A stretch of DNA of 51,792 nt, taken from positions 1 through 51,792 of the IMG/VR virus record IMGVR_UViG_3300035659_000022. One strand, given 5' to 3'. The DNA comes from a virus. The notes under the pieces are model-generated. The model was not told the origin of the DNA, searched no databases, and saw nothing but the letters and a program-made list of their open reading frames with translations. The position numbers were made by a program, and so were the translations under genes. This document shows positions 1 to 51,792 of this stretch, in pieces; the stretch's first letter is position 1, and each line of letters starts with the position of its first letter.

Positions 1-77
1 TCCCCTTAACCACTACGACTTACTAGTGTATACCTCGTCGATTGAACACATGACTCCTGATAGGGGTAAACAGTCAC
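1..77. repeat. Terminal direct repeat, left copy (circular closure overlap)
   Basis: The first 77 bases are identical to the last 77 bases of the window (51716-51792). The methyltransferase reading frame continues perfectly across the overlap, so this is best read as the assembly overlap of a circular (or circularly permuted) molecule of 51,715 bp. A genuine short terminal repeat of the packaged DNA is possible but less likely, because it would split a gene. Confidence 0.9.
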
Positions 78-421
78 TTGTGGAAGCTCGCAAGGTCGCG
101 AGGAAGGGTGCAACGCTTTTTCTATCCTGCCCCGTCACCCCCGAGGGTCAGGACGGCTACAATACACAATATTCTGCTCATGTGTACGAGTGGAAGAGGT
201 CAGAAATCGAACAAGGGTTGAAAGACACCGATTGGCAACTGGAGGAAGCCTATGGATTACTCGTTAACAAATGTGACCTATTACCCCGTTTGACTAGTGA
301 ACTGCGCCGCGCCTTCGAGAGGCAGGCCGAATATATTCCCTGGGAATGGCTGATGCCCATTTGGGCGAGCCAGTTTCCAGAGGTCGCCAAAGAAGTGGCG
401 TACACTGCAAAAGCATTGTAA
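1..421 (+). CDS. SAM-dependent methyltransferase, 3' part (gene spans the joint)
   Basis: This is the C-terminal part of a class I SAM methyltransferase whose start is at 51366. The two parts join in frame through the terminal repeat (base 51716 equals base 1) to give about 256 residues. The part here holds the post-motif segment DLLVYTSSIEHM, equivalent to motifs IV and V around the catalytic face, and a basic segment RKVARKGATLFL that normally follows. Codons run from base 2 to the stop ending at 421. The gene lies between a MazG-like gene and the deazaguanine genes. The substrate is unknown: DNA, a small molecule or the modified base are all possible. The family assignment is firm and the substrate is not. 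Confidence 0.8.
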   Translation, partial: PLNHYDLLVYTSSIEHMTPDRGKQSLVEARKVARKGATLFLSCPVTPEGQDGYNTQYSAHVYEWKRSEIEQGLKDTDWQLEEAYGLLVNKCDLLPRLTSELRRAFERQAEYIPWEWLMPIWASQFPEVAKEVAYTAKAL

Positions 422-431
422 GGAGATCAAA

Positions 432-815
432 ATGCCTACATTCAAGCAAGTAAACCCAGATGAAATTGAGCTGCTACGAGGTAGGGCTAGAGGTCGCGTT
501 TCCTACCCTATTATCAAGGGGTTCTTAGAAACTGGCTTCTACATCGCTCAGGTTGATCTATCCGATACCACGCGGAAGGCGCCGACGATGCATGTACTAT
601 TGAAGTCCTATGTCCAAAACCACGACACACCTGTCAAGCCCCTCCTACGTCGCAATACCCTCTACCTAATGCGCCTCGATGTTGACAAAGAAGGCAATCC
701 AGTTCCGAATTGGCGTGCCATTCGCGATGCGGACATTGAGGGTGAGGTTACGGATGCCGGCGTAACCGAAATAATCGCCAAGCCCGTTGTGGAAAAAGGG
801 GCTAAGGCAAAATGA
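432..815 (+). CDS. Conserved-looking protein of unknown function upstream of queE
   Basis: A 127-residue protein with no family that I recognise. It is mixed alpha/beta with a central segment rich in Leu and Arg (around KPLLRRNTLYLMRLD) and a charged Lys/Ala-rich tail. It starts at ATG 432 after AAGGAGATCAAA, a strong ribosome binding site. Its stop overlaps the queE start by 4 nt (ATGA), so it is translationally coupled to deazaguanine synthesis. The location suggests an accessory role in base modification, but nothing in the sequence proves it. Confidence 0.8.
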   Translation: MPTFKQVNPDEIELLRGRARGRVSYPIIKGFLETGFYIAQVDLSDTTRKAPTMHVLLKSYVQNHDTPVKPLLRRNTLYLMRLDVDKEGNPVPNWRAIRDADIEGEVTDAGVTEIIAKPVVEKGAKAK

Positions 816-1456
816 GCACTAACTACCAGGTAAACGAGATATTCCAAAGCATCCAAGGCGAGGGGGTCCTCGCTGGCATACCCGCAACCTTCATCCGTCT
901 GCAAGGCTGTAATGTTGGCTGCAACTTCTGTGACACCAAGTACACGTGGAAGGCTGGCGGCAAGTCCATGACGGTCGACGAGGTCATCGTCGCATGCAAG
1001 CCCCTTAGACCGTTGGTGGTCGTGACAGGCGGCGAACCTACGTTGTACGACCTCGACGAACTGTTTGTCGAGCTCCGTGACGCAGGTCAGACTCTGTGGA
1101 GCCATGACTTCCGCATCCAACTCGAGACGTCGGGACAGAACTCCTTGAGGGGTGCTCGCACTCCGGACTTCATAACCTGGTCTCCGAAGGCTAACCTCAA
1201 GTATGACGCTCCGAAAGACATCAAGGCCCAGGCCTTTGAGGTTAAGTGGGTTGTGGACGACATTCTCGACCTGCACCTCGTCGAAATAGTCATGCAGGAG
1301 GTCAACGCGGTTTCGGCGCGAAACCCCATATGCGTCTTGATGCCGGAAGGCTGTCCACCTACACAGGAACACGCGCTGAAGGCGGTATCTTGGCTAAGCA
1401 AACACTCAGACTGGCGTTACGGCGACCGCCTACAATTCCGAATTGGGGTAAAGTAA
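812..1456 (+). CDS. queE: 7-carboxy-7-deazaguanine synthase (radical SAM, QueE)
   Basis: QueE converts 6-carboxy-tetrahydropterin to 7-carboxy-7-deazaguanine (CDG), using SAM and a [4Fe-4S] cluster. The 214-residue protein has the QueE N-terminus IFQSIQGEG followed by the radical SAM motif C-x3-C-x2-C (CNVGCNFCDTKY, residues about 33-44) and the TGGEPTLY motif near residue 71. The length fits the family. The start at ATG 812 overlaps the upstream stop by 4 nt, and folE follows 1 nt after the stop region. It acts with FolE (1458) and QueD (50670) in this same circular operon. Confidence is high. Confidence 0.95.
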   Translation: MSTNYQVNEIFQSIQGEGVLAGIPATFIRLQGCNVGCNFCDTKYTWKAGGKSMTVDEVIVACKPLRPLVVVTGGEPTLYDLDELFVELRDAGQTLWSHDFRIQLETSGQNSLRGARTPDFITWSPKANLKYDAPKDIKAQAFEVKWVVDDILDLHLVEIVMQEVNAVSARNPICVLMPEGCPPTQEHALKAVSWLSKHSDWRYGDRLQFRIGVK

Positions 1457-1457
1457 C

Positions 1458-2036
1458 ATGACAACAAAACCAAAACCCCGCACGGACGCCATTGACGAAA
1501 GTGGTATGACGGATATCCTCTCTCGCATATTCGGCGAAAATGTTTGGGACGACGACGTAAGTCAAACCGCAAAGCGCTGGTTGAAAGCAATGCAAGAGTT
1601 CACCCCACAGAAGACTATGCCCTTTAAGTTCACCGTGTTCCCTGCATCCGTCAACCAGTTGATCGTCGTGTGTGGTATCCAATTTGCAAGCCTATGTGCC
1701 CATCACCTATTCCCATTCGTTGGCGAGTGCCATGTGGGATACATCCCAAATAGGAAGCAGGTCGGTCTAAGTAAGATCCCTCGCTTAGTACACTGGTTTG
1801 CGACGCAGCCTCAATCTCAAGAAAAGCTAACGTCAGACATCGCTACCTTTCTCAAGCATGAACTCGAGGCGATGGGAGTCGCGGTTGTTATCGAAGCGAC
1901 TCATACTTGTATGTCAGCTCGCGGTGTACGCGAGCATAACGGTATCATGCGGACTTCCGAAATGCGTGGACTATTTTTAACCGCTTCTGAGGCCCGCAAT
2001 GAATTCCTTACTTTGATCGGGAGGTCAACAAAATGA
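1458..2036 (+). CDS. folE: GTP cyclohydrolase I (FolE)
   Basis: FolE opens GTP to 7,8-dihydroneopterin triphosphate, the first step to 7-deazaguanines (and to folate). The 192-residue protein has the zinc and catalytic signature SLCAHHLFPF (about residues 75-84), the substrate segment VGLSKIPRLV, and the second zinc cysteine in ATHTCMSARGV (about 149-159). The usual bacterial length is 180-220 residues. In this phage it sits directly behind queE and ahead of a DpdA-like gene, so its job is most likely to supply DNA-modification precursor rather than folate. Confidence 0.95.
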   Translation: MTTKPKPRTDAIDESGMTDILSRIFGENVWDDDVSQTAKRWLKAMQEFTPQKTMPFKFTVFPASVNQLIVVCGIQFASLCAHHLFPFVGECHVGYIPNRKQVGLSKIPRLVHWFATQPQSQEKLTSDIATFLKHELEAMGVAVVIEATHTCMSARGVREHNGIMRTSEMRGLFLTASEARNEFLTLIGRSTK

Positions 2037-2323
2037 CTAAGCCTCTGAGTGTAAGAGCGGCACTACAAACGGTTATGGATCAAGTTGACTACACCTCTGG
2101 CGCTTGCAGAGTAACCGAAATGGTTGGCGCTGTCTTATCCAAAGACGTAATCGAGCTTGCCAAAGAAGCCATTCGGGCAGCGTCCGACAACGCCCTCCAA
2201 GTTTGCCAACTACTACTTCGGTTTGCTGATAGTAAATATGATGAACAGGAAGCCAGCGACGCAGGTGATATCCTTGCCGAGGCTATTAACCTTGCTCGTG
2301 AAGTCTTAAAGGAGCCCAAATGA
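2033..2323 (+). CDS. Small helical protein of unknown function in the deazaguanine cluster
   Basis: A 96-residue, predominantly helical protein that I cannot assign. It overlaps folE by 4 nt (ATGA) and the DpdA-like gene by 4 nt, so it is part of a tightly coupled folE-x-dpdA unit. It has no cysteine pairs typical of zinc binding and no membrane segment. A partner or adaptor for base exchange is possible but is inference from position only. Confidence 0.75.
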   Translation: MTKPLSVRAALQTVMDQVDYTSGACRVTEMVGAVLSKDVIELAKEAIRAASDNALQVCQLLLRFADSKYDEQEASDAGDILAEAINLAREVLKEPK

Positions 2324-3057
2324 AACTGATGGTGATAGCACCCCCGAATGCGTTGAGTGTACTGACTACTATGCGGTTGAGCGCACATCTCGTTCTTGCT
2401 CAGCATGTGCAGGATCCTATCTATAGGGCTTTCTACCAATCGGCACAGCGTCGTGGCGCTTTCATTATGCTTGACAACGGCGCAGGGGAGCTAGGCCGCT
2501 CACTCCCAATTGCGGACCTCGTCGAAGCGGCCAATGAGGTGCATGCAGACGAAATCACCTTACCCGACGTACTCGGCGATGCTGATGCTACACTCAGCGC
2601 AACGAGGGCCGCCATGCCTGACGTACCTAGAAAAGCCCGAGCTGTATGCCCTCATGGTACTACCTGGGACGAGTGGGAGGCATGTGCATACGCAATGGTA
2701 CAATGGGGCTGTGCAACCATTTGTATAGGCCGCTACGACAACCTTCCTGGAGGGCGTATCCCAGCACTTGCAATAATCCTTAAAAACAATTGGCAATGGA
2801 CACATCATATTCACTTGTTCGGTTGTTCCGAGCCGCCACTCGCGGAGACTCGTCGTGAGCTTGCAGCCGCACCGTGGATTCGTTCGATGGACACAGGAGC
2901 AGCGGTAGCCTTCGCCCAAGAAGACTGCCTTATTAACGATGGTGCTGGACACGCTTCATTGAAATGGGGGGCACCTTTCAACTCTCGGTATACCGAGCAA
3001 AACATCGACCTGTTACTTGACATCTGTAATGGAGAGCGACCTTGCATGTTACATTGA
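2320..3057 (+). CDS. DpdA-like deazaguanine DNA transglycosylase (TGT fold)
   Basis: Phage DpdA proteins resemble tRNA-guanine transglycosylases and exchange guanine in DNA for a 7-deazaguanine. The 245-residue protein shows TGT/DpdA-like features in order: MLDNGAGELG (about residues 50-59, an acidic strand end), ITLPDVLGDAD (about 79-89, likely catalytic Asp), a segment ICIGRYDN, HIHLFGCSEPP (beta strand and loop), and SMDTGAAVAFA near residue 190 (the SxDT of TGT-like barrels). The C-terminal zinc site of bacterial Tgt is absent, as in small phage versions. The neighbours folE and queE support the call. Catalytic residues are inferred by resemblance and not by alignment. Confidence 0.75.
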   Translation: MKLMVIAPPNALSVLTTMRLSAHLVLAQHVQDPIYRAFYQSAQRRGAFIMLDNGAGELGRSLPIADLVEAANEVHADEITLPDVLGDADATLSATRAAMPDVPRKARAVCPHGTTWDEWEACAYAMVQWGCATICIGRYDNLPGGRIPALAIILKNNWQWTHHIHLFGCSEPPLAETRRELAAAPWIRSMDTGAAVAFAQEDCLINDGAGHASLKWGAPFNSRYTEQNIDLLLDICNGERPCMLH

Positions 3058-3281
3058 AAAATCAAACCACGAAAGAAGTCGAAGGTGTCCTTTGTGTTAA
3101 TAGGGAAACACATACCTGCATCATACTACAAGCGGACGTGGATAGGTTGGAAGACTTGGTAGCAATTGCCCGAGCGATGAAAGTTCCTAACGTGCAGCTA
3201 ATAGTACCCAAAGCTGCAGTTAAGGAGCTCGAAGCCTACGGTTGGGCGCCCATACCTGACTTGGTAGTGGTAACAAAATGA
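3042..3281 (+). CDS. Small protein of unknown function
   Basis: A 79-residue protein starting at TTG 3042, just behind GGAGAG; there is no in-frame ATG upstream. It overlaps the end of the DpdA-like gene by 16 nt and the next gene by 4 nt. The C-terminal half (strand, helix, strand ending in GWAPIPDLVVVTK) faintly resembles the end of a GNAT acetyltransferase fold, but it is too short for that enzyme. No function is claimed. Confidence 0.7.
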   Translation: MHVTLKNQTTKEVEGVLCVNRETHTCIILQADVDRLEDLVAIARAMKVPNVQLIVPKAAVKELEAYGWAPIPDLVVVTK

Positions 3282-3487
3282 AAAAGAAGCCGCCTGTCAC
3301 GAGCGAGAAGGTTAAAAACGCTTATCGTATTATTTGTGCGCATTCAGGAATTACTAAAGCAGCCCTGTGCAAGGAGCTCGGTATTCGCTCGCAAAATTTG
3401 GATGGGCTGCTAGCAGGATTGGAAAGGGCAAACATGCTCGTCTCCGAAGCGTACGGCGCTTACTACAAGTTTGAGGCTAAACCATGA
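3278..3487 (+). CDS. Small winged helix-turn-helix protein
   Basis: A 69-residue protein with a winged-helix pattern: an N-terminal helix, then ITKAALCKELGIRSQNLDGLL (recognition helices, residues about 25-45) and a C-terminal wing ending AYYKFE. It overlaps both neighbours by 4 nt, so it is co-translated with the DNA polymerase gene behind it. It may regulate this operon or assist replication. The fold is a reading of the pattern, not an alignment. Confidence 0.7.
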   Translation: MKKKPPVTSEKVKNAYRIICAHSGITKAALCKELGIRSQNLDGLLAGLERANMLVSEAYGAYYKFEAKP

Positions 3488-6400
3488 AACCTAAAGCACC
3501 GTTTGCGGAATGCAACCTGTGTACATTGAAGAGTGAGCCCTTTGTGCCTTCTAGCGGTAAGTTCGACGCAGCTCTTGTTTGCGTCGGAGAGGCCCCAGGA
3601 GGTGTGGAAGTAGAACAAGGGAAGCCTTTCGTTGGCCCTAGCGGACAGCTTCTCGACGCGGCCGTAGCACAGGCTCAAGGAAACCCTCTCGATTCTTTTC
3701 GGACAAATGCGGTACTATGTCGTCCGCCGGGTAATCGCGATCCTTCGCAAACGGAGATTGCGTGCTGCAATCAACGGCTAGTACAAGAGCTTCTCCAAAC
3801 CAAGGTACCTATTCTCTTGCTTGGGAAGGTCGCTTGCGAGGCGCTCGGTGTAGATGCTGGTCAGCAAGGTGCGTGGTTACAATGGCAGGGACACTGGGTG
3901 ATACCAGCTTGGCATCCTGCATACGTTTTACGCAAGGCAGACGAAGCATCGGTGTTCCTAAAAGAAGTTGAGTCTGCTATACAAGGCCCGGAAAAAAGGC
4001 GAGAGTTCCACCCTAAAGTCGTTTGGGCAGAGTCCGCCGAGAACTTGAAGGTGCTGTTGGACGAATGTCCCGACGGCGCATGGGTGTCTTTCGACCTAGA
4101 AACCGATCAGGTTCAGTGGTACGATACGCCAGAAGTACCTCGGGACGCGATACTTATGTTGCAGCTCGCTTGGTGTGAGGACTTCGGTATAGTGGTCTCA
4201 GACGAACTACTTTACGACAATCCGAAGGTTCCTGAAATCCTACGGGAGTTCTTTGCTCGGGTGAAGACGGTAGGACAGAATGCAAAATTCGATTGTATAT
4301 TCCTACGAAGCCATTTAGGTATCGCACCGTTCCTAGACTTCGACACGATGCTAGCCCAATATTGCGTATCACCTTTGACCCCGGTACTAAAGACCGACCT
4401 GACTTGGGTGCCTGCGGACTCCTTGGCACCTGGCGACGAACTGGTAGCTTTTCAAGTGCAGGATACCTCTCAGGCCCTACCGGCTGTAGTAGTCGCCACC
4501 AAAAAGCAGGAAGCCGAATGCTACGAAGTTGTAACCACTGAAGGGACGGTAGTATGCAGTAAAGGCCATCGCTGGCCCTGCCATATCAATCATCAAGGTT
4601 ATGTGCACTATCAGACAACAGAGCAGTTAGCACGCTCTAGGGGGCAACGAGACCTAATGTACTTCTGCGCTCCCTGGGAGGTAGACGTTACCTACGAGGG
4701 AGGCTACATTGCAGGCATACTTGATGGTGAGGGCTCCCTGGGCTGCGCCAACGGGGGCAAGAAGGCGGGGACGCAAGCCTACGACGTAAGCATCTCCCAA
4801 AACCCGGGTGTTGTACTTGACCGTGTTTCGGCTATTCTGGAGCGGAAGGGATTCAAAACGCGCCTTAGTAAGCTTGGCGATGGCTTGTGCATGCAGCTCC
4901 ATTTTCGGGGAGCTCGTGAGGGCTTACGAGCTTTGGGTACTTTCCGTCCTGTCCGTCTATTACCGAAGGCTCGGCAACTATGGGAGGGTAGACGTAAACA
5001 CCGAAAAGCTTCTATCCTGGCAATCAACTACCTTGGTATTCGGGAAGTAATCGGTATCGAGACTACTACTGGTACCTTTATCGCGAACGGGTTTTTGAGT
5101 CATAATTGTCTTGATGAGACAATGCCTTTAGGGCTGAAGAAAATGGCAACCCTGGAGTTCGGCATTCCTGATTACGAGCCGGAGCTGGTTACGCAGTATC
5201 TAACCTCCCGGAATGACCGGTATTCAAAAGTCCCTCCCGATAAGTTGGCACAGTATGGGGTTTTAGATGTTGTAGTCACACTTGCACTACGTGAGGTCCT
5301 CGAGAAAAGACTCCGCGACGCGGGGCAGTATGAATCGCCGTTTATGAATATCATTATGCCTGCATCTCGCATGCTCGAGAACGCAGAGCTCCGGGGGTTG
5401 TTAGTAGACAACAACGCACTCGAGACAGCCGGTGAGCGGTTTCAAAAACTCATTGCCGAGAAGGCTGCAGCCCTTAGGGAGTGCGTAGAAGAGCCCGACT
5501 TGAATCCTAATGCTCCAACACAAGTGGCTGCAGTACTCTACGATAAACTAAAGCTCCCGATGCCGCACGGCTACAAGATACAACCTCGGTCGACGGGAGC
5601 TCCCGCTCTCGATCAGCTAAAAGGACTCCACCCGGTGATTCAACTTTTGGAGGAGTATCGTAGAGTTGCGAAGCTGTACTCCTCCTACGTTAAGAATGTT
5701 GTAGCGTTTCGCGATAATCAAGGTCGCGTACATGCCCGCTTTTTGATTCAGGGGACGGAGGTTGGAAGGTTGGCTGTCCGCGATCCTGCTTTGCAAACTA
5801 TCAGTCGCCCGGATGATGAGTATGGTGGAATGGTTCGTAGTATGTACGTTGCAGCTCCCGGAAAGGTACTTGTCATTGCAGACTACAGTCAAGCTGAACT
5901 GCGGGTATTAGCTGCATACAGTAAAGAGCCTTTCCTTCTGGACGTCTATGCTCGCGATCGTGACCTACACGAAGAAGTTGCCTTGGTAATGTTTGGACCC
6001 CAGCGTACCAAGGCGCAGCGGGCGATATGCAAAATGTTCAACTTTGCCTATGTCTACGGCGGCACGATATATTCGTTTGCGGAAGAGTTGGGATTGCCGT
6101 TGGAAACAGCTCGCCAGTTTGTACGCAAGTATGACGAGAATATGCCTGTAGCGCTCGCGTGGAAAAAGGAGCAGTTTGTCAAAGCGCAGGCGGATGGGTA
6201 TGTCGAAACAATCTTTAGGCGGCGTCGGCACTTTCCACTCATAACCAACGACAACATAAAGGATGTGCGAAAGGCTAGTGTACATATGGTGGTTGCGGGA
6301 ACTGCTAGCGATCTCACGCTAAGGTCTTGCATCGAGCTTGAGGCCTTAGGGATACCCGTAGTACTTACGGTACATGATAGCGTTATGGCCGAAGTGGATG

Positions 6401-6585
6401 AGGAGACTGCTAAGGCCGTTGGTGAGCGGATGCACAAAGTGCTGATGGGGATGGGAGAAAGGTATTTGCCGGAGGTGCTGTGGAAAGTGGATGTTGAGAT
6501 CAGGCGTAGGTGGTACGGAGATGATTACTTGACCTTAGAGGATGGAGAGTGGGTGGAGCATGAGACTAAAGGAGTTATTGGATGA
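3484..6585 (+). CDS. Fused uracil-DNA glycosylase / 3'-5' exonuclease / family A DNA polymerase, with intein
   Basis: Replicative polymerase of 1033 residues before splicing and about 785 after. Residues 1-165 are a family 4-type UDG: cluster cysteines C10, C13, C79 and C94 or C95, motif GEAPGG (35-40), and HPAYVLR near the domain end. A DnaQ-like exonuclease follows: DLE at 204-206, NAKFD, then YGVLDVVVT. An intein (294-541) splits the exonuclease before its last motif. The polymerase part has motif A DYSQAELR (Asp800), a finger motif KMFNFAYVYGG, and motif C VHD (Asp965). Exonuclease and polymerase catalytic residues look intact. It starts with a 4-nt overlap on the upstream gene and ends with a 4-nt overlap on an HNH gene. 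Fusing UDG to PolA couples uracil removal or sensing to synthesis. Confidence 0.93.
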   Translation: MKPKAPFAECNLCTLKSEPFVPSSGKFDAALVCVGEAPGGVEVEQGKPFVGPSGQLLDAAVAQAQGNPLDSFRTNAVLCRPPGNRDPSQTEIACCNQRLVQELLQTKVPILLLGKVACEALGVDAGQQGAWLQWQGHWVIPAWHPAYVLRKADEASVFLKEVESAIQGPEKRREFHPKVVWAESAENLKVLLDECPDGAWVSFDLETDQVQWYDTPEVPRDAILMLQLAWCEDFGIVVSDELLYDNPKVPEILREFFARVKTVGQNAKFDCIFLRSHLGIAPFLDFDTMLAQYCVSPLTPVLKTDLTWVPADSLAPGDELVAFQVQDTSQALPAVVVATKKQEAECYEVVTTEGTVVCSKGHRWPCHINHQGYVHYQTTEQLARSRGQRDLMYFCAPWEVDVTYEGGYIAGILDGEGSLGCANGGKKAGTQAYDVSISQNPGVVLDRVSAILERKGFKTRLSKLGDGLCMQLHFRGAREGLRALGTFRPVRLLPKARQLWEGRRKHRKASILAINYLGIREVIGIETTTGTFIANGFLSHNCLDETMPLGLKKMATLEFGIPDYEPELVTQYLTSRNDRYSKVPPDKLAQYGVLDVVVTLALREVLEKRLRDAGQYESPFMNIIMPASRMLENAELRGLLVDNNALETAGERFQKLIAEKAAALRECVEEPDLNPNAPTQVAAVLYDKLKLPMPHGYKIQPRSTGAPALDQLKGLHPVIQLLEEYRRVAKLYSSYVKNVVAFRDNQGRVHARFLIQGTEVGRLAVRDPALQTISRPDDEYGGMVRSMYVAAPGKVLVIADYSQAELRVLAAYSKEPFLLDVYARDRDLHEEVALVMFGPQRTKAQRAICKMFNFAYVYGGTIYSFAEELGLPLETARQFVRKYDENMPVALAWKKEQFVKAQADGYVETIFRRRRHFPLITNDNIKDVRKASVHMVVAGTASDLTLRSCIELEALGIPVVLTVHDSVMAEVDEETAKAVGERMHKVLMGMGERYLPEVLWKVDVEIRRRWYGDDYLTLEDGEWVEHETKGVIG
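4363..5106 (+). mobile_element. Intein with LAGLIDADG endonuclease domain inside the DNA polymerase
   Basis: A 248-residue in-frame insertion (residues 294-541 of the host protein). It begins with Cys294 (CVSPLTPVLKTD, block A) after the extein residues TMLAQY and ends GFLSHN followed by extein Cys542 (CLDET). The terminal His-Asn and the +1 Cys are the residues used for splicing. Removing it restores the exonuclease segment TMLAQYCLDET. The middle holds YIAGILDGEGSL, one LAGLIDADG-type motif, in a domain of about 110 residues. Block B is slightly unusual (SKGH rather than TxxH). Splicing is predicted and not shown. Confidence 0.92.
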
Positions 6586-49896: not shown

Positions 49897-50118
49897 ATGG
49901 ATACAGGAAAAGGAAAATTCGAGATTGTCAATGCTAAAATCGAAGATGAACTTAAAGAGGCAATGCAGAGGATGGAGGCAAAGTATCCCCAGCACGGTGG
50001 TTGGTTCCACGTTGGCGAAGTTGTTGAGCTCCGTGGTAGTCGCTTTAGAGTGAAAGCGGTCAAACCCACCGAACTCCGCCTCAAGCTATTACGGCGTAAG
50101 GAATCGATTGGTGCCTAA
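49897..50118 (+). CDS. Small SH3-like basic protein
   Basis: A 73-residue protein: helical start (ELKEAMQRMEAKYPQHG) and a strand-rich end (VGEVVELRGSRFRVKAVKPTELRLKLL). Binding site GAGGTTCC is modest. The fold resembles a small SH3-like barrel, possibly binding nucleic acid. Confidence 0.7.
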   Translation: MDTGKGKFEIVNAKIEDELKEAMQRMEAKYPQHGGWFHVGEVVELRGSRFRVKAVKPTELRLKLLRRKESIGA

Positions 50119-50680
50119 TATAGATTTCGTCGCGGTTGATACGCCTCGCTTTACCCGTCCCGAGTTACTACGGCACGGAACAATCCCGCATGCGATGTAT
50201 GGGGTTGCTCCTCGGAACATCAAGGGGGGAGCTTGGTGGGACGTTACCAGACGAGCGGCGTATGAGGCAAACAACATGAGATGTTGGGCGTGTGGAGGCC
50301 CGGGACCTCTTGAGGCTCACGAAGCGTATCAGATTGACTACTACAAGTACCGGATGATATTCATTGAGACTGTGGCGTTATGTAGTTATTGCCACACGTT
50401 CATACATATTGGCCGACTTATTGGAATGTTCGCTCACGGTGAAGTATCGTCTACGGCGACTAAGAGAGTTGTCTTACATGGCTACCAAGTACTTAAAGCC
50501 GCCGGGCTCAAGTGCCCTTGGCAAACCAGAGTCGTCGGCAGCGACCGGCTACCTTGGAAAGGTTCCACTGGGTGGATTCGGAAAGTGCTAACCAACTGTG
50601 ACCCTATTGAGTACTTAGTAGAGGGGACCAGGTGGTGTCTAGTCTTTGAAGGAAAGGAGTATTACCAATATGCCTTATAG
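50111..50680 (+). CDS. Zinc-binding HNH-like protein
   Basis: Start GTG 50111 or TTG 50108, behind AAGGAATCGA; 189 or 190 residues. CWACGGPGPLEAHEAYQID (about residues 58-76) and VALCSYCHTFIHIG (about 91-104) form an HNH-like zinc site with two CxxC pairs and His residues. The C-terminal half is without a recognised motif. A nuclease or a metal-binding regulator. Overlaps QueD by 11 nt. Confidence 0.6.
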   Translation: MPNIDFVAVDTPRFTRPELLRHGTIPHAMYGVAPRNIKGGAWWDVTRRAAYEANNMRCWACGGPGPLEAHEAYQIDYYKYRMIFIETVALCSYCHTFIHIGRLIGMFAHGEVSSTATKRVVLHGYQVLKAAGLKCPWQTRVVGSDRLPWKGSTGWIRKVLTNCDPIEYLVEGTRWCLVFEGKEYYQYAL

Positions 50681-51116
50681 CATATCGCGTGCGTATTCTT
50701 TTTGCGCCGCACATAGGATTGAAGGCCATCCTAAATGCGGCCGGCTGCACGGTCACAACTACGAAGTTATTGTCGAGTATGCCCATCCCGCTATCCCACA
50801 AGACGGGATGCTCATCGACTACGGCGAACTCGACAAGATCGTGAAGCCTATCATCGGCCGGATGGACCACCGCTACATTCTATCGTCGAGTAACATCTTG
50901 ATGAATGATCCCTACAGGAAGGTCGCGTTTGAACGCGGTGACGTGTTTGAGTTACCTACGGCTGCATCAACAGCGGAGCTTCTTGCGGAGTTTCTGTGGA
51001 ACGAGGTCTTCCAAGCCCTTCGGCTTGACTATCCTGTCTACCCGCAGAACCTAAGGATCATCGTGAAAGAGACGCCGAAGAGTAGCGCCGCCTACCAAGG
51101 AGAGGTGCCAAAATGA
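50670..51116 (+). CDS. queD: 6-carboxy-tetrahydropterin synthase (QueD)
   Basis: QueD turns dihydroneopterin triphosphate into 6-carboxy-tetrahydropterin, the QueE substrate. 148 residues from ATG 50670: FCAAHRIEGHPKCGRLHGHNYEV carries the Cys/His zinc set (FxAAH, CxxLHGH, here as two separate runs about 10-31); IDYGEL and MDHRYIL follow, with catalytic Glu in the C-terminal IIVKETP. Strong binding site GAAAGGAG precedes it. The MazG-like gene overlaps its end by 4 nt. Confidence 0.94.
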   Translation: MPYSISRAYSFCAAHRIEGHPKCGRLHGHNYEVIVEYAHPAIPQDGMLIDYGELDKIVKPIIGRMDHRYILSSSNILMNDPYRKVAFERGDVFELPTAASTAELLAEFLWNEVFQALRLDYPVYPQNLRIIVKETPKSSAAYQGEVPK

Positions 51117-51373
51117 AAACACTTACAGAAGAGCGACAAGCGGTATACGGGAACGCTAGTACACTAACAGGTCAGATGTGTCGGCTTGTTATTGGCGACC
51201 TCACAATCTTGTGCCTTCACCATCCAGAAATGTTCCACCCTTGGATAAGGATATTGAACAAGTTACTCCGTATACTGTACTCGCCGACTAATGTAGACCA
51301 CTGGGTAGACATCCGGGGCTACACGGAGATCGTTATCCACCATTTGACTGCGGAAGGAAAGGGTAGTGACTGA
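51113..51373 (+). CDS. MazG-like protein (DUF6378-type)
   Basis: An 86-residue protein with ERQAVYGNAS (residues about 7-16), a helical middle with many Ile/Leu, and HWVDIRGYTEIVIHHL at the end, a pattern of DUF6378/MazG-like proteins (YG...D-x-GY). Overlaps queD by 4 nt and the methyltransferase by 8 nt. It may hydrolyse a nucleotide; the exact role is unknown. Confidence 0.68.
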   Translation: MKTLTEERQAVYGNASTLTGQMCRLVIGDLTILCLHHPEMFHPWIRILNKLLRILYSPTNVDHWVDIRGYTEIVIHHLTAEGKGSD

Positions 51374-51792
51374 AGACTCTTGCTCGACGTACCAGATGCG
51401 TAACTTCTACGCGCAGTTCGGCGACGGCTTCTTTACCTCGTTGGATGTTATGAACTATATACAGCATGCGGCTGTCGTGCGTAAAGCTCGAGACGACGAC
51501 AACGTTCTGGACATCTGCTGTGGGCGGGGCCTCTTGCTTCCGTTACTACGTTATCAGAAGAAGACTATAAATTCATACACAGGTGTTGACCTTGAACCAA
51601 ACAATGTGATCTTTCGGACGCGTCGAGTTACAGACGGCAAGCCGGTAGCGCCCGGCTACTACCCCTTCAAGGTATACTTTGCTAAGGTAGATGCAGTCGA
51701 AATGACTAACCTACTTCCCCTTAACCACTACGACTTACTAGTGTATACCTCGTCGATTGAACACATGACTCCTGATAGGGGTAAACAGTCAC
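51366..51792 (+). CDS. SAM-dependent methyltransferase, 5' part (gene spans the joint)
   Basis: From GTG 51366 (overlapping the previous stop by 8 nt). The SAM site is in VLDICCGRGLLLP (about residues 42-54, motif I GxGxG-like as CCGRG), followed by YTGVDLEPNNV (motif II acidic residue). The frame enters the 77-bp terminal repeat and continues at base 2 on the other side, ending at 421, total 256 residues. Positioned between queD and queE, it may methylate DNA or a modification intermediate. Confidence 0.85.
   Translation, partial: MTEDSCSTYQMRNFYAQFGDGFFTSLDVMNYIQHAAVVRKARDDDNVLDICCGRGLLLPLLRYQKKTINSYTGVDLEPNNVIFRTRRVTDGKPVAPGYYPFKVYFAKVDAVEMTNLLPLNHYDLLVYTSSIEHMTPDRGKQS
51716..51792. repeat. 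Terminal direct repeat, right copy
   Basis: Identical to 1-77; see the left copy. Unique genome length is 51,715 bp. Confidence 0.9.

What the first reader, a model, noticed from the sequence alone, without database searches (positions are those of the whole stretch)
812..3057. Deazaguanine DNA modification pathway without QueC
Seen: QueE (812), FolE (1458), DpdA-like enzyme (2320) and QueD (50670, adjacent across the circle joint). No protein in the window carries the QueC ATP-binding motif (SGGxDS). Known: FolE, QueD and QueE give 7-carboxy-7-deazaguanine; QueC is needed to reach preQ0, and DpdA-type enzymes insert deazaguanines into phage DNA. Inference: the inserted base may be the carboxy form (dCDG), or host QueC supplies preQ0. 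Carboxy-deazaguanine in phage DNA has been reported for some phages, but which base this gene set makes is open. The unknown genes at 432 and 2033 and the methyltransferase across the joint are candidate decorating enzymes.
Basis: partly seen in the sequence, partly recalled or inferred. Interest (0 to 1): 0.8.

Follow-up and report, generated by a model that had tools for sequence, protein, structure and literature searches.

The report
Phage deazaguanine operon without QueC
This phage carries one operon that can make a carboxylated guanine look-alike, a small enzyme that probably swaps it into DNA, and a methyltransferase that recurs next to such enzymes in dozens of unrelated phages, suggesting a methylated DNA base that is not yet described.

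Summary
In a circular 51,715-bp genome (77-bp terminal repeat), one tight operon runs across the joint: queD, a DUF6378 gene, a SAM methyltransferase (MTase), an unknown 127-aa gene, queE, folE, a 96-aa gene and a DpdA-like TIM barrel, just before polA. QueC is absent. In sister phages QueC sits between primase and QueD, so here it was lost, cleanly. CDG (7-carboxy-7-deazaguanine) is the last base this phage can make alone. New here is the MTase. Its family has 53 IMG/VR loci. In 39 a DpdA gene lies within 3 kb. Of 34 loci with CDG genes, 30 lack QueC. Other loci pair DpdA and MTase with a queuosine-precursor transporter. A Nitrosotalea MAG and Faecalibacterium genomes also carry the pair. Close homologues are absent from 50,697 sequenced phage records. 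Best reading: CDG is made, DpdA exchanges it into DNA, and the MTase methylates the base. The chief rival is host QueC/QueF finishing the base to preQ1, then methylation. The DNA product is untested. dCDG is itself already reported (from memory), so this is a new variant of a known kind.

The parts
50670..51116 (+). QueD (6-carboxytetrahydropterin synthase)
   Evidence: PF01242 E 7e-26, PHROG 2389, TIGR03367 below cut-off
51113..51373 (+). DUF6378-like small protein, conserved at this position in the clade
   Evidence: PF19905 E 3.5e-4, below cut-off; found in clade members
51366..51791 (+). SAM-dependent methyltransferase, N-terminal part (joins across the circle to 26-421; 256 aa in all)
   Evidence: PF13489 E 8e-7; intact across joint; 53 relatives in IMG/VR
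26..421 (+). SAM-dependent methyltransferase, C-terminal part (continuation across the joint)
432..815 (+). P127, unknown protein conserved in most members of this phage clade
   Evidence: 37-45% identical homologues in L001, L007, L009; further members by HMM; no Pfam hit
812..1456 (+). QueE (CDG synthase, radical SAM)
   Evidence: PF04055 and PHROG 2076 E 2e-32; CX3CX2C motif
1458..2036 (+). FolE (GTP cyclohydrolase I)
   Evidence: PF01227 E 1e-51
2033..2323 (+). Unknown 96-aa protein between folE and dpdA
   Evidence: no significant hit
2320..3057 (+). DpdA-like TIM-barrel transglycosylase, 245 aa; D52, D83, H112, G137-R138, H165/G168 and D191 lie at barrel strand ends
3042..3281 (+). 79-aa protein between dpdA and polA, similar small gene in relatives
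3484..6585 (+). DNA polymerase I with UDG-like N-terminus, interrupted by an intein (DNA 4363-5106)
50108..50680 (+). HNH endonuclease; directly followed by queC in sister phages, directly by queD here
   Evidence: 53% identical to L007 homologue; gene order

Best explanation
The phage makes 7-carboxy-7-deazaguanine (CDG) itself: FolE takes GTP to dihydroneopterin triphosphate, QueD makes carboxytetrahydropterin, QueE makes CDG (roles shown by family match; chemistry known). Having lost QueC, it does not go on to ADG or preQ0. The small DpdA-like barrel exchanges guanine in phage DNA for CDG (inferred), probably as a shield against host restriction (inferred from other phages). The SAM methyltransferase of the operon then methylates the deazaguanine, before or after insertion, perhaps at the 7-carboxylate to give a methyl ester (inferred from linkage; site unknown).
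For: One operon with overlapping genes and ribosome-binding sites. CDG genes present, QueC absent from the complete circle. QueC is ancestral: it sits between primase and QueD in about 11 sister lineages and is missing in the window, in L001/L002/L008 and in L046. The two QueC-less sisters with a readable dpdA share a DpdA lineage (64% identity, against 42-48% to QueC-bearing members) with changes at the positions matching the TGT base pocket: PQG to PHG and loss of a lysine in AKRYE. The methyltransferase family lies within 3 kb of a DpdA gene in 39 of 53 IMG/VR loci; 30 of 34 loci with CDG genes lack QueC, and whole-record searches agree. Partner DpdAs match PHROG 887, queuine tRNA-ribosyltransferase, E about 1e-54. 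Cellulophaga phage phiST, a sequenced isolate with a relative of this DpdA plus QueD, QueE and FolE, also lacks QueC in its whole genome.
Against: The methyltransferase also occurs with QueC, with QueC plus a DpdC-like gene, with the YhhQ transporter, and with QueF plus YhhQ, so CDG is not its only plausible substrate. Host QueC could finish the base. The pocket change rests on two related sequences; phiST, QueC-less, keeps the Q and the K, while BSP7 and Youna2, with QueC, have H. DpdA identity rests on fold, motif order and context, not on a significant sequence match to TGT. 14 of the 53 methyltransferase loci have no DpdA recognised, several of them at contig edges.
Confidence: 0.45

Rival explanations
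1. Host completion: the host's QueC and QueF turn phage CDG into preQ1, DpdA inserts preQ1, and the methyltransferase makes 7-(methylamino)methyl-7-deazaguanine, a base already reported in phages (from memory).
For: L038 (DpdA, MTase, QueF-like, YhhQ) and L079 (MTase and QueF-like in one ORF, then YhhQ) tie close relatives of this MTase to preQ1. Faecalibacterium hosts of the MTase lack QueC and QueF, which leaves imported preQ1 or queuine as the likely source.
Against: About 30 phage loci keep CDG genes with this MTase and drop QueC, which is odd if every host supplies QueC but not QueD or QueE. The L079 fusion may be an assembly frameshift, as its MTase end is short. No QueF in the window.
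Confidence: 0.27
2. Plain dCDG: DpdA inserts CDG, and the methyltransferase does something unrelated to the base, such as methylating another DNA position or an RNA.
For: dCDG in phage DNA is known (from memory). The MTase occurs with several different base sources. Sister L001/L008 lacks QueC and lacks this MTase in the fetched region.
Against: The MTase is repeatedly linked to DpdA in bacterial, phage and archaeal contexts.
Confidence: 0.15
3. The genes raise host queuosine supply for tRNA and the DpdA-like protein is inactive or acts on tRNA.
For: FolE, QueD and QueE alone feed the queuosine pathway.
Against: A conserved barrel with both catalytic Asp positions, next to polA in every clade member where both genes were fetched; no tRNA gene in the window.
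Confidence: 0.06
4. Base exchange happens on free nucleotides (for example dGMP) before replication, with pyrophosphatase- and kinase-like neighbours, and the adjacent polymerase incorporates the product.
For: phiST has MazG and a P-loop kinase-like gene by its DpdA; Bacillus BSP7 has a weak dNK-like match there; CPt10 has an HD ATPase and a dTMP kinase. The window has a DUF6378 gene.
Against: No kinase was found in the window operon; the DUF6378 match is below cut-off; its link to MazG is from memory.
Confidence: 0.07

Closest known systems
Phage DpdA pathway (FolE, QueD, QueE, QueC, DpdA; Hutinet et al. 2019, PMC6884629)
   Same: FolE, QueD, QueE and a transglycosylase-like gene in one cluster
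   Different: No QueC, so no preQ0 by phage enzymes; DpdA outside the annotated DpdA PHROGs; extra SAM methyltransferase and P127
Cellulophaga phage phiST cluster
   Same: QueD, QueE, FolE and a related DpdA-like protein, no QueC in the genome
   Different: MazG and a P-loop gene; no methyltransferase or P127 in the region fetched; has pocket residues Q and K
Campylobacter CPt10/CP20 DpdA-like protein
   Same: DpdA-like protein related at 26%
   Different: QueC present in CPt10; Campylobacter phages are reported as highly modified with dADG (PMC6884629)
dPreQ1 methyltransferase DpdM (Cui et al. 2023, from memory; paper not held)
   Same: SAM methyltransferase in a deazaguanine DNA pathway
   Different: Reported to have an unusual fold; this one is a class I Rossmann methyltransferase whose only distant matches in sequenced phages have no annotated que genes nearby
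mRNA cap guanine-N7 methyltransferases
   Same: Rossmann fold; among the Foldseek and weak Pfam matches
   Different: Generic class I match, about 11-16% identity, many other families score equally

Membership tests
Phage DpdA-type deazaguanine DNA modification | FolE, QueD and QueE making CDG | tested here: met
Phage DpdA-type deazaguanine DNA modification | QueC making preQ0 | tested here: not met
   no PF06508 in the circular genome, no motif
Phage DpdA-type deazaguanine DNA modification | TGT-superfamily transglycosylase (TIM barrel, two catalytic Asp) | tested here: inconclusive
   barrel model and ordered motifs D52/D83/D191; 7ui4 Foldseek E 5e-5; no significant TGT profile match
Phage DpdA-type deazaguanine DNA modification | Deazaguanine in virion DNA | not testable with these tools
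   needs LC-MS
DpdA2 or DpdA3 subfamily | Clusters with the named reference proteins (nt-1; Campylobacter phages) | tested here: inconclusive
   tblastn relative of CPt10/CP20 and phiST, 26-30%; nt-1 not among the hits; reference networks not available
DpdM preQ1 methyltransferase | Homologous to the validated DpdM of a sequenced phage | tested here: inconclusive
   only distant homologues (23-30%) in 50,697 phage records; DpdM sequence not held
Class I SAM methyltransferase | Rossmann fold and SAM-binding motif | tested here: met
   PF13489, motif DxCCGRGLL, model of the 61% identical L011 homologue
QueF or YhhQ salvage phages | QueF or YhhQ encoded by the phage | tested here: not met

The most novel reading that the evidence does not exclude
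A widespread phage system makes a new DNA base, a methylated carboxy-deazaguanine (for example 7-methoxycarbonyl-7-deazaguanine), through QueC-less CDG synthesis, a CDG-accepting DpdA and a dedicated methyltransferase family shared by bacterial phages and an archaeal MAG.
Probability: 0.35. Interest if true: 0.85.

Novelty: new variant of a known kind. Interest (0 to 1): 0.62.

Why it matters
Phage DNA bases decide which restriction and defence enzymes can act. A recurrent methyltransferase beside DpdA-type enzymes in over 50 environmental loci, in Faecalibacterium genomes and in a Nitrosotalea MAG points to a base chemistry missed because close homologues are absent from sequenced phage isolates. 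It gives a direct test: which base is in the DNA, and whether QueC loss switches the inserted base. Faecalibacterium prausnitzii APC923/51-1 and Faecalibacterium sp. I4-1-79 offer cultured genomes carrying the DpdA-MTase pair.

Tried and rejected
Profile search of the first, too diverse DpdA alignment in viral contigs failed for lack of conserved stretches. HMM search of the window-clade DpdA profile against PDB gave no TGT, only chance hits; the smaller, mixed profile had 7ui4 at E 0.0097 below an unrelated DUF89 match, so I do not rely on it. hhalign of window-type DpdA against the partner DpdA family was weak (E 0.009, probability 5%), though it lined up the DNGA/DSGA and IHxxG motifs. P127 and the DJ-1/PfpI protein have no useful hit in sequenced phages. 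QueF hits in L007, L075, L113 and others are cross-hits to FolE, which shares its fold. The Q-to-H pocket change as a general CDG signature was rejected because phiST lacks it and QueC-bearing BSP7 and Youna2 have H. Key papers (Cui 2023; 2024 review; DpdA structure) were not held, so dCDG, dDG, mdPreQ1 and DpdM are cited from memory. Promoter and terminator scans were at chance level.

Full report
Observation. The window is a circular phage genome: a 77-bp direct repeat joins 1-77 to 51716-51792, giving 51,715 bp. Across the joint lies one operon on the plus strand, with overlapping or abutting genes and Shine-Dalgarno-like sequences: queD 50670-51116, a DUF6378-like gene 51113-51373, a SAM methyltransferase 51366 to joint to 421 (256 aa), P127 432-815, queE 812-1456, folE 1458-2036, a 96-aa gene, and dpdA 2320-3057, followed by a 79-aa gene, a 69-aa gene and polA. 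Pfam, PHROGs and NCBIfam support FolE, QueD and QueE, and their key motifs are intact. No QueC profile match or motif exists in the genome, nor GATase, QueF or YhhQ.

The DpdA-like protein. It has no Pfam hit. Translated searches find relatives beside que genes in phiST, BSP7 and Youna2, and a relative in CPt10. An AlphaFold model from 14 family members has pLDDT 93 and is an eight-stranded barrel. The conserved residues D52, D83, H112 (Q in most of the clade), G137-R138, H165/G168 and D191 sit at successive strand ends, in the order of TGT residues D102, D156, Q203, G230-L231, M260-G261 and D280 (TGT numbering from memory). Foldseek ranks bacterial DpdA second (E 5e-5), but other TIM barrels score similarly. 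I take it as a DpdA-type enzyme at about 0.85.

QueC loss. A scan with the primase recovered the phage clade. The usual order is primase, optional HNH, queC, queD, DUF6378, optional methyltransferase, P127, optional DJ-1/PfpI, queE, folE, dpdA, polA. QueC is present in about 11 distinct sister lineages. It is absent in the window, where the HNH gene now overlaps queD, in L001/L002/L008 and in L046, where primase is followed directly by queD. The primase tree places the window near QueC-bearing L060 (support only 0.5) and L008 with QueC-bearing L045, while the dpdA genes of the window and L001 are sisters. This fits two losses, or exchange of a QueC-less dpdA module. Both share PHG for PQG and lack the lysine of AKRYE. 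Because phiST, which also lacks QueC, has neither change, this is suggestive only. The reverse also occurs: L055 and L059 keep queC, dpdA and a YhhQ-type transporter but show no queD, queE or folE in the fetched region.

The methyltransferase. A scan with it gave 27 loci, and an alignment scan 53. In 39 of 53 a DpdA gene lies within 3 kb; the partner DpdAs match PHROG 887 at about 1e-54. Of the 34 loci with queD or queE, 30 lack queC and 4 have it; whole-record QueC searches agree. In a rough set of related clusters without the methyltransferase 11 have QueC and 2 do not; Fisher p 4e-6, but the loci are not phylogenetically independent, so this is only a guide. Other contexts are DpdA-MTase-YhhQ (8 loci), DpdA-MTase-QueF-YhhQ (L038), QueC plus a DpdC-like DUF6884 gene (L032, L037, and Nitrosotalea MAG L072), and Faecalibacterium genomes lacking QueC and QueF. 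Sequenced phages hold only distant (23-30%) methyltransferases; in the two examined no que gene is annotated within 8 kb. The model of the L011 homologue is a class I Rossmann methyltransferase; the window's own protein was not modelled because it spans the joint.

Mechanism. Shown: CDG synthesis genes, no QueC, a DpdA-like barrel, and a DpdA-linked methyltransferase family. Inferred: CDG insertion, methylation, and protection from restriction. The 7-substituents predicted across the contexts (carboxylate, amide, aminomethyl) all carry an O or N that a methyltransferase could use, which would reconcile most of them; clusters with QueC alone (preQ0) do not fit this. The chief rival is host completion to preQ1.

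Comparison and novelty. The QueC-less cluster is of a known kind: phiST has it, and dCDG is reported (from memory). The methyltransferase linkage was not found in the searchable literature, with the limit that the main paper was not held. I rate it a new variant of a known kind.

Noticed in passing
window 4363-5106: A 248-aa intein with a LAGLIDADG-like motif interrupts DNA polymerase I; relatives L002 and L007 lack it.
   Followed up: partly
L055 3771-8198 and L059 12391-15028: Sister phages keep QueC, DpdA and a YhhQ-type transporter but show no QueD, QueE or FolE; QueC would be pointless if only preQ0 were imported, so the transporter may bring CDG or the host may supply it. L055 also has a glycosyltransferase plus methyltransferase protein next to dpdA.
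   Followed up: partly
L001 1657-2280, L010 8199-8831, L011 8101-8733, L009 10806-11462: A DJ-1/PfpI protein with a conserved Cys lies in the cluster next to P127 in several sisters; isocyanide hydratase belongs to this superfamily (from memory), so it could act on the nitrile of preQ0.
   Followed up: no
L028 9986-11965: A DpdA gene carries a large in-frame insert that looks like an intein.
   Followed up: no
L037 11061-13644: Three tandem DpdA paralogues beside the methyltransferase, QueC and a DpdC-like gene.
   Followed up: no
L009 4740-6150: QueC is split in two by a homing-endonuclease-like ORF.
   Followed up: no
L072 6377-11304 (Nitrosotalea MAG): QueD, QueE, FolE, QueC, a weak DpdA match, the methyltransferase and a DpdC-like DUF6884 gene in one run, probably an archaeal virus or island.
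   Followed up: partly
L070 and L073 (Faecalibacterium genomes): DpdA-methyltransferase pair in cultured gut bacteria that lack QueC and QueF.
   Followed up: partly
L079 1916-3016: Methyltransferase and QueF-like domains in one ORF, followed by YhhQ; may be a fusion or a frameshift.
   Followed up: partly
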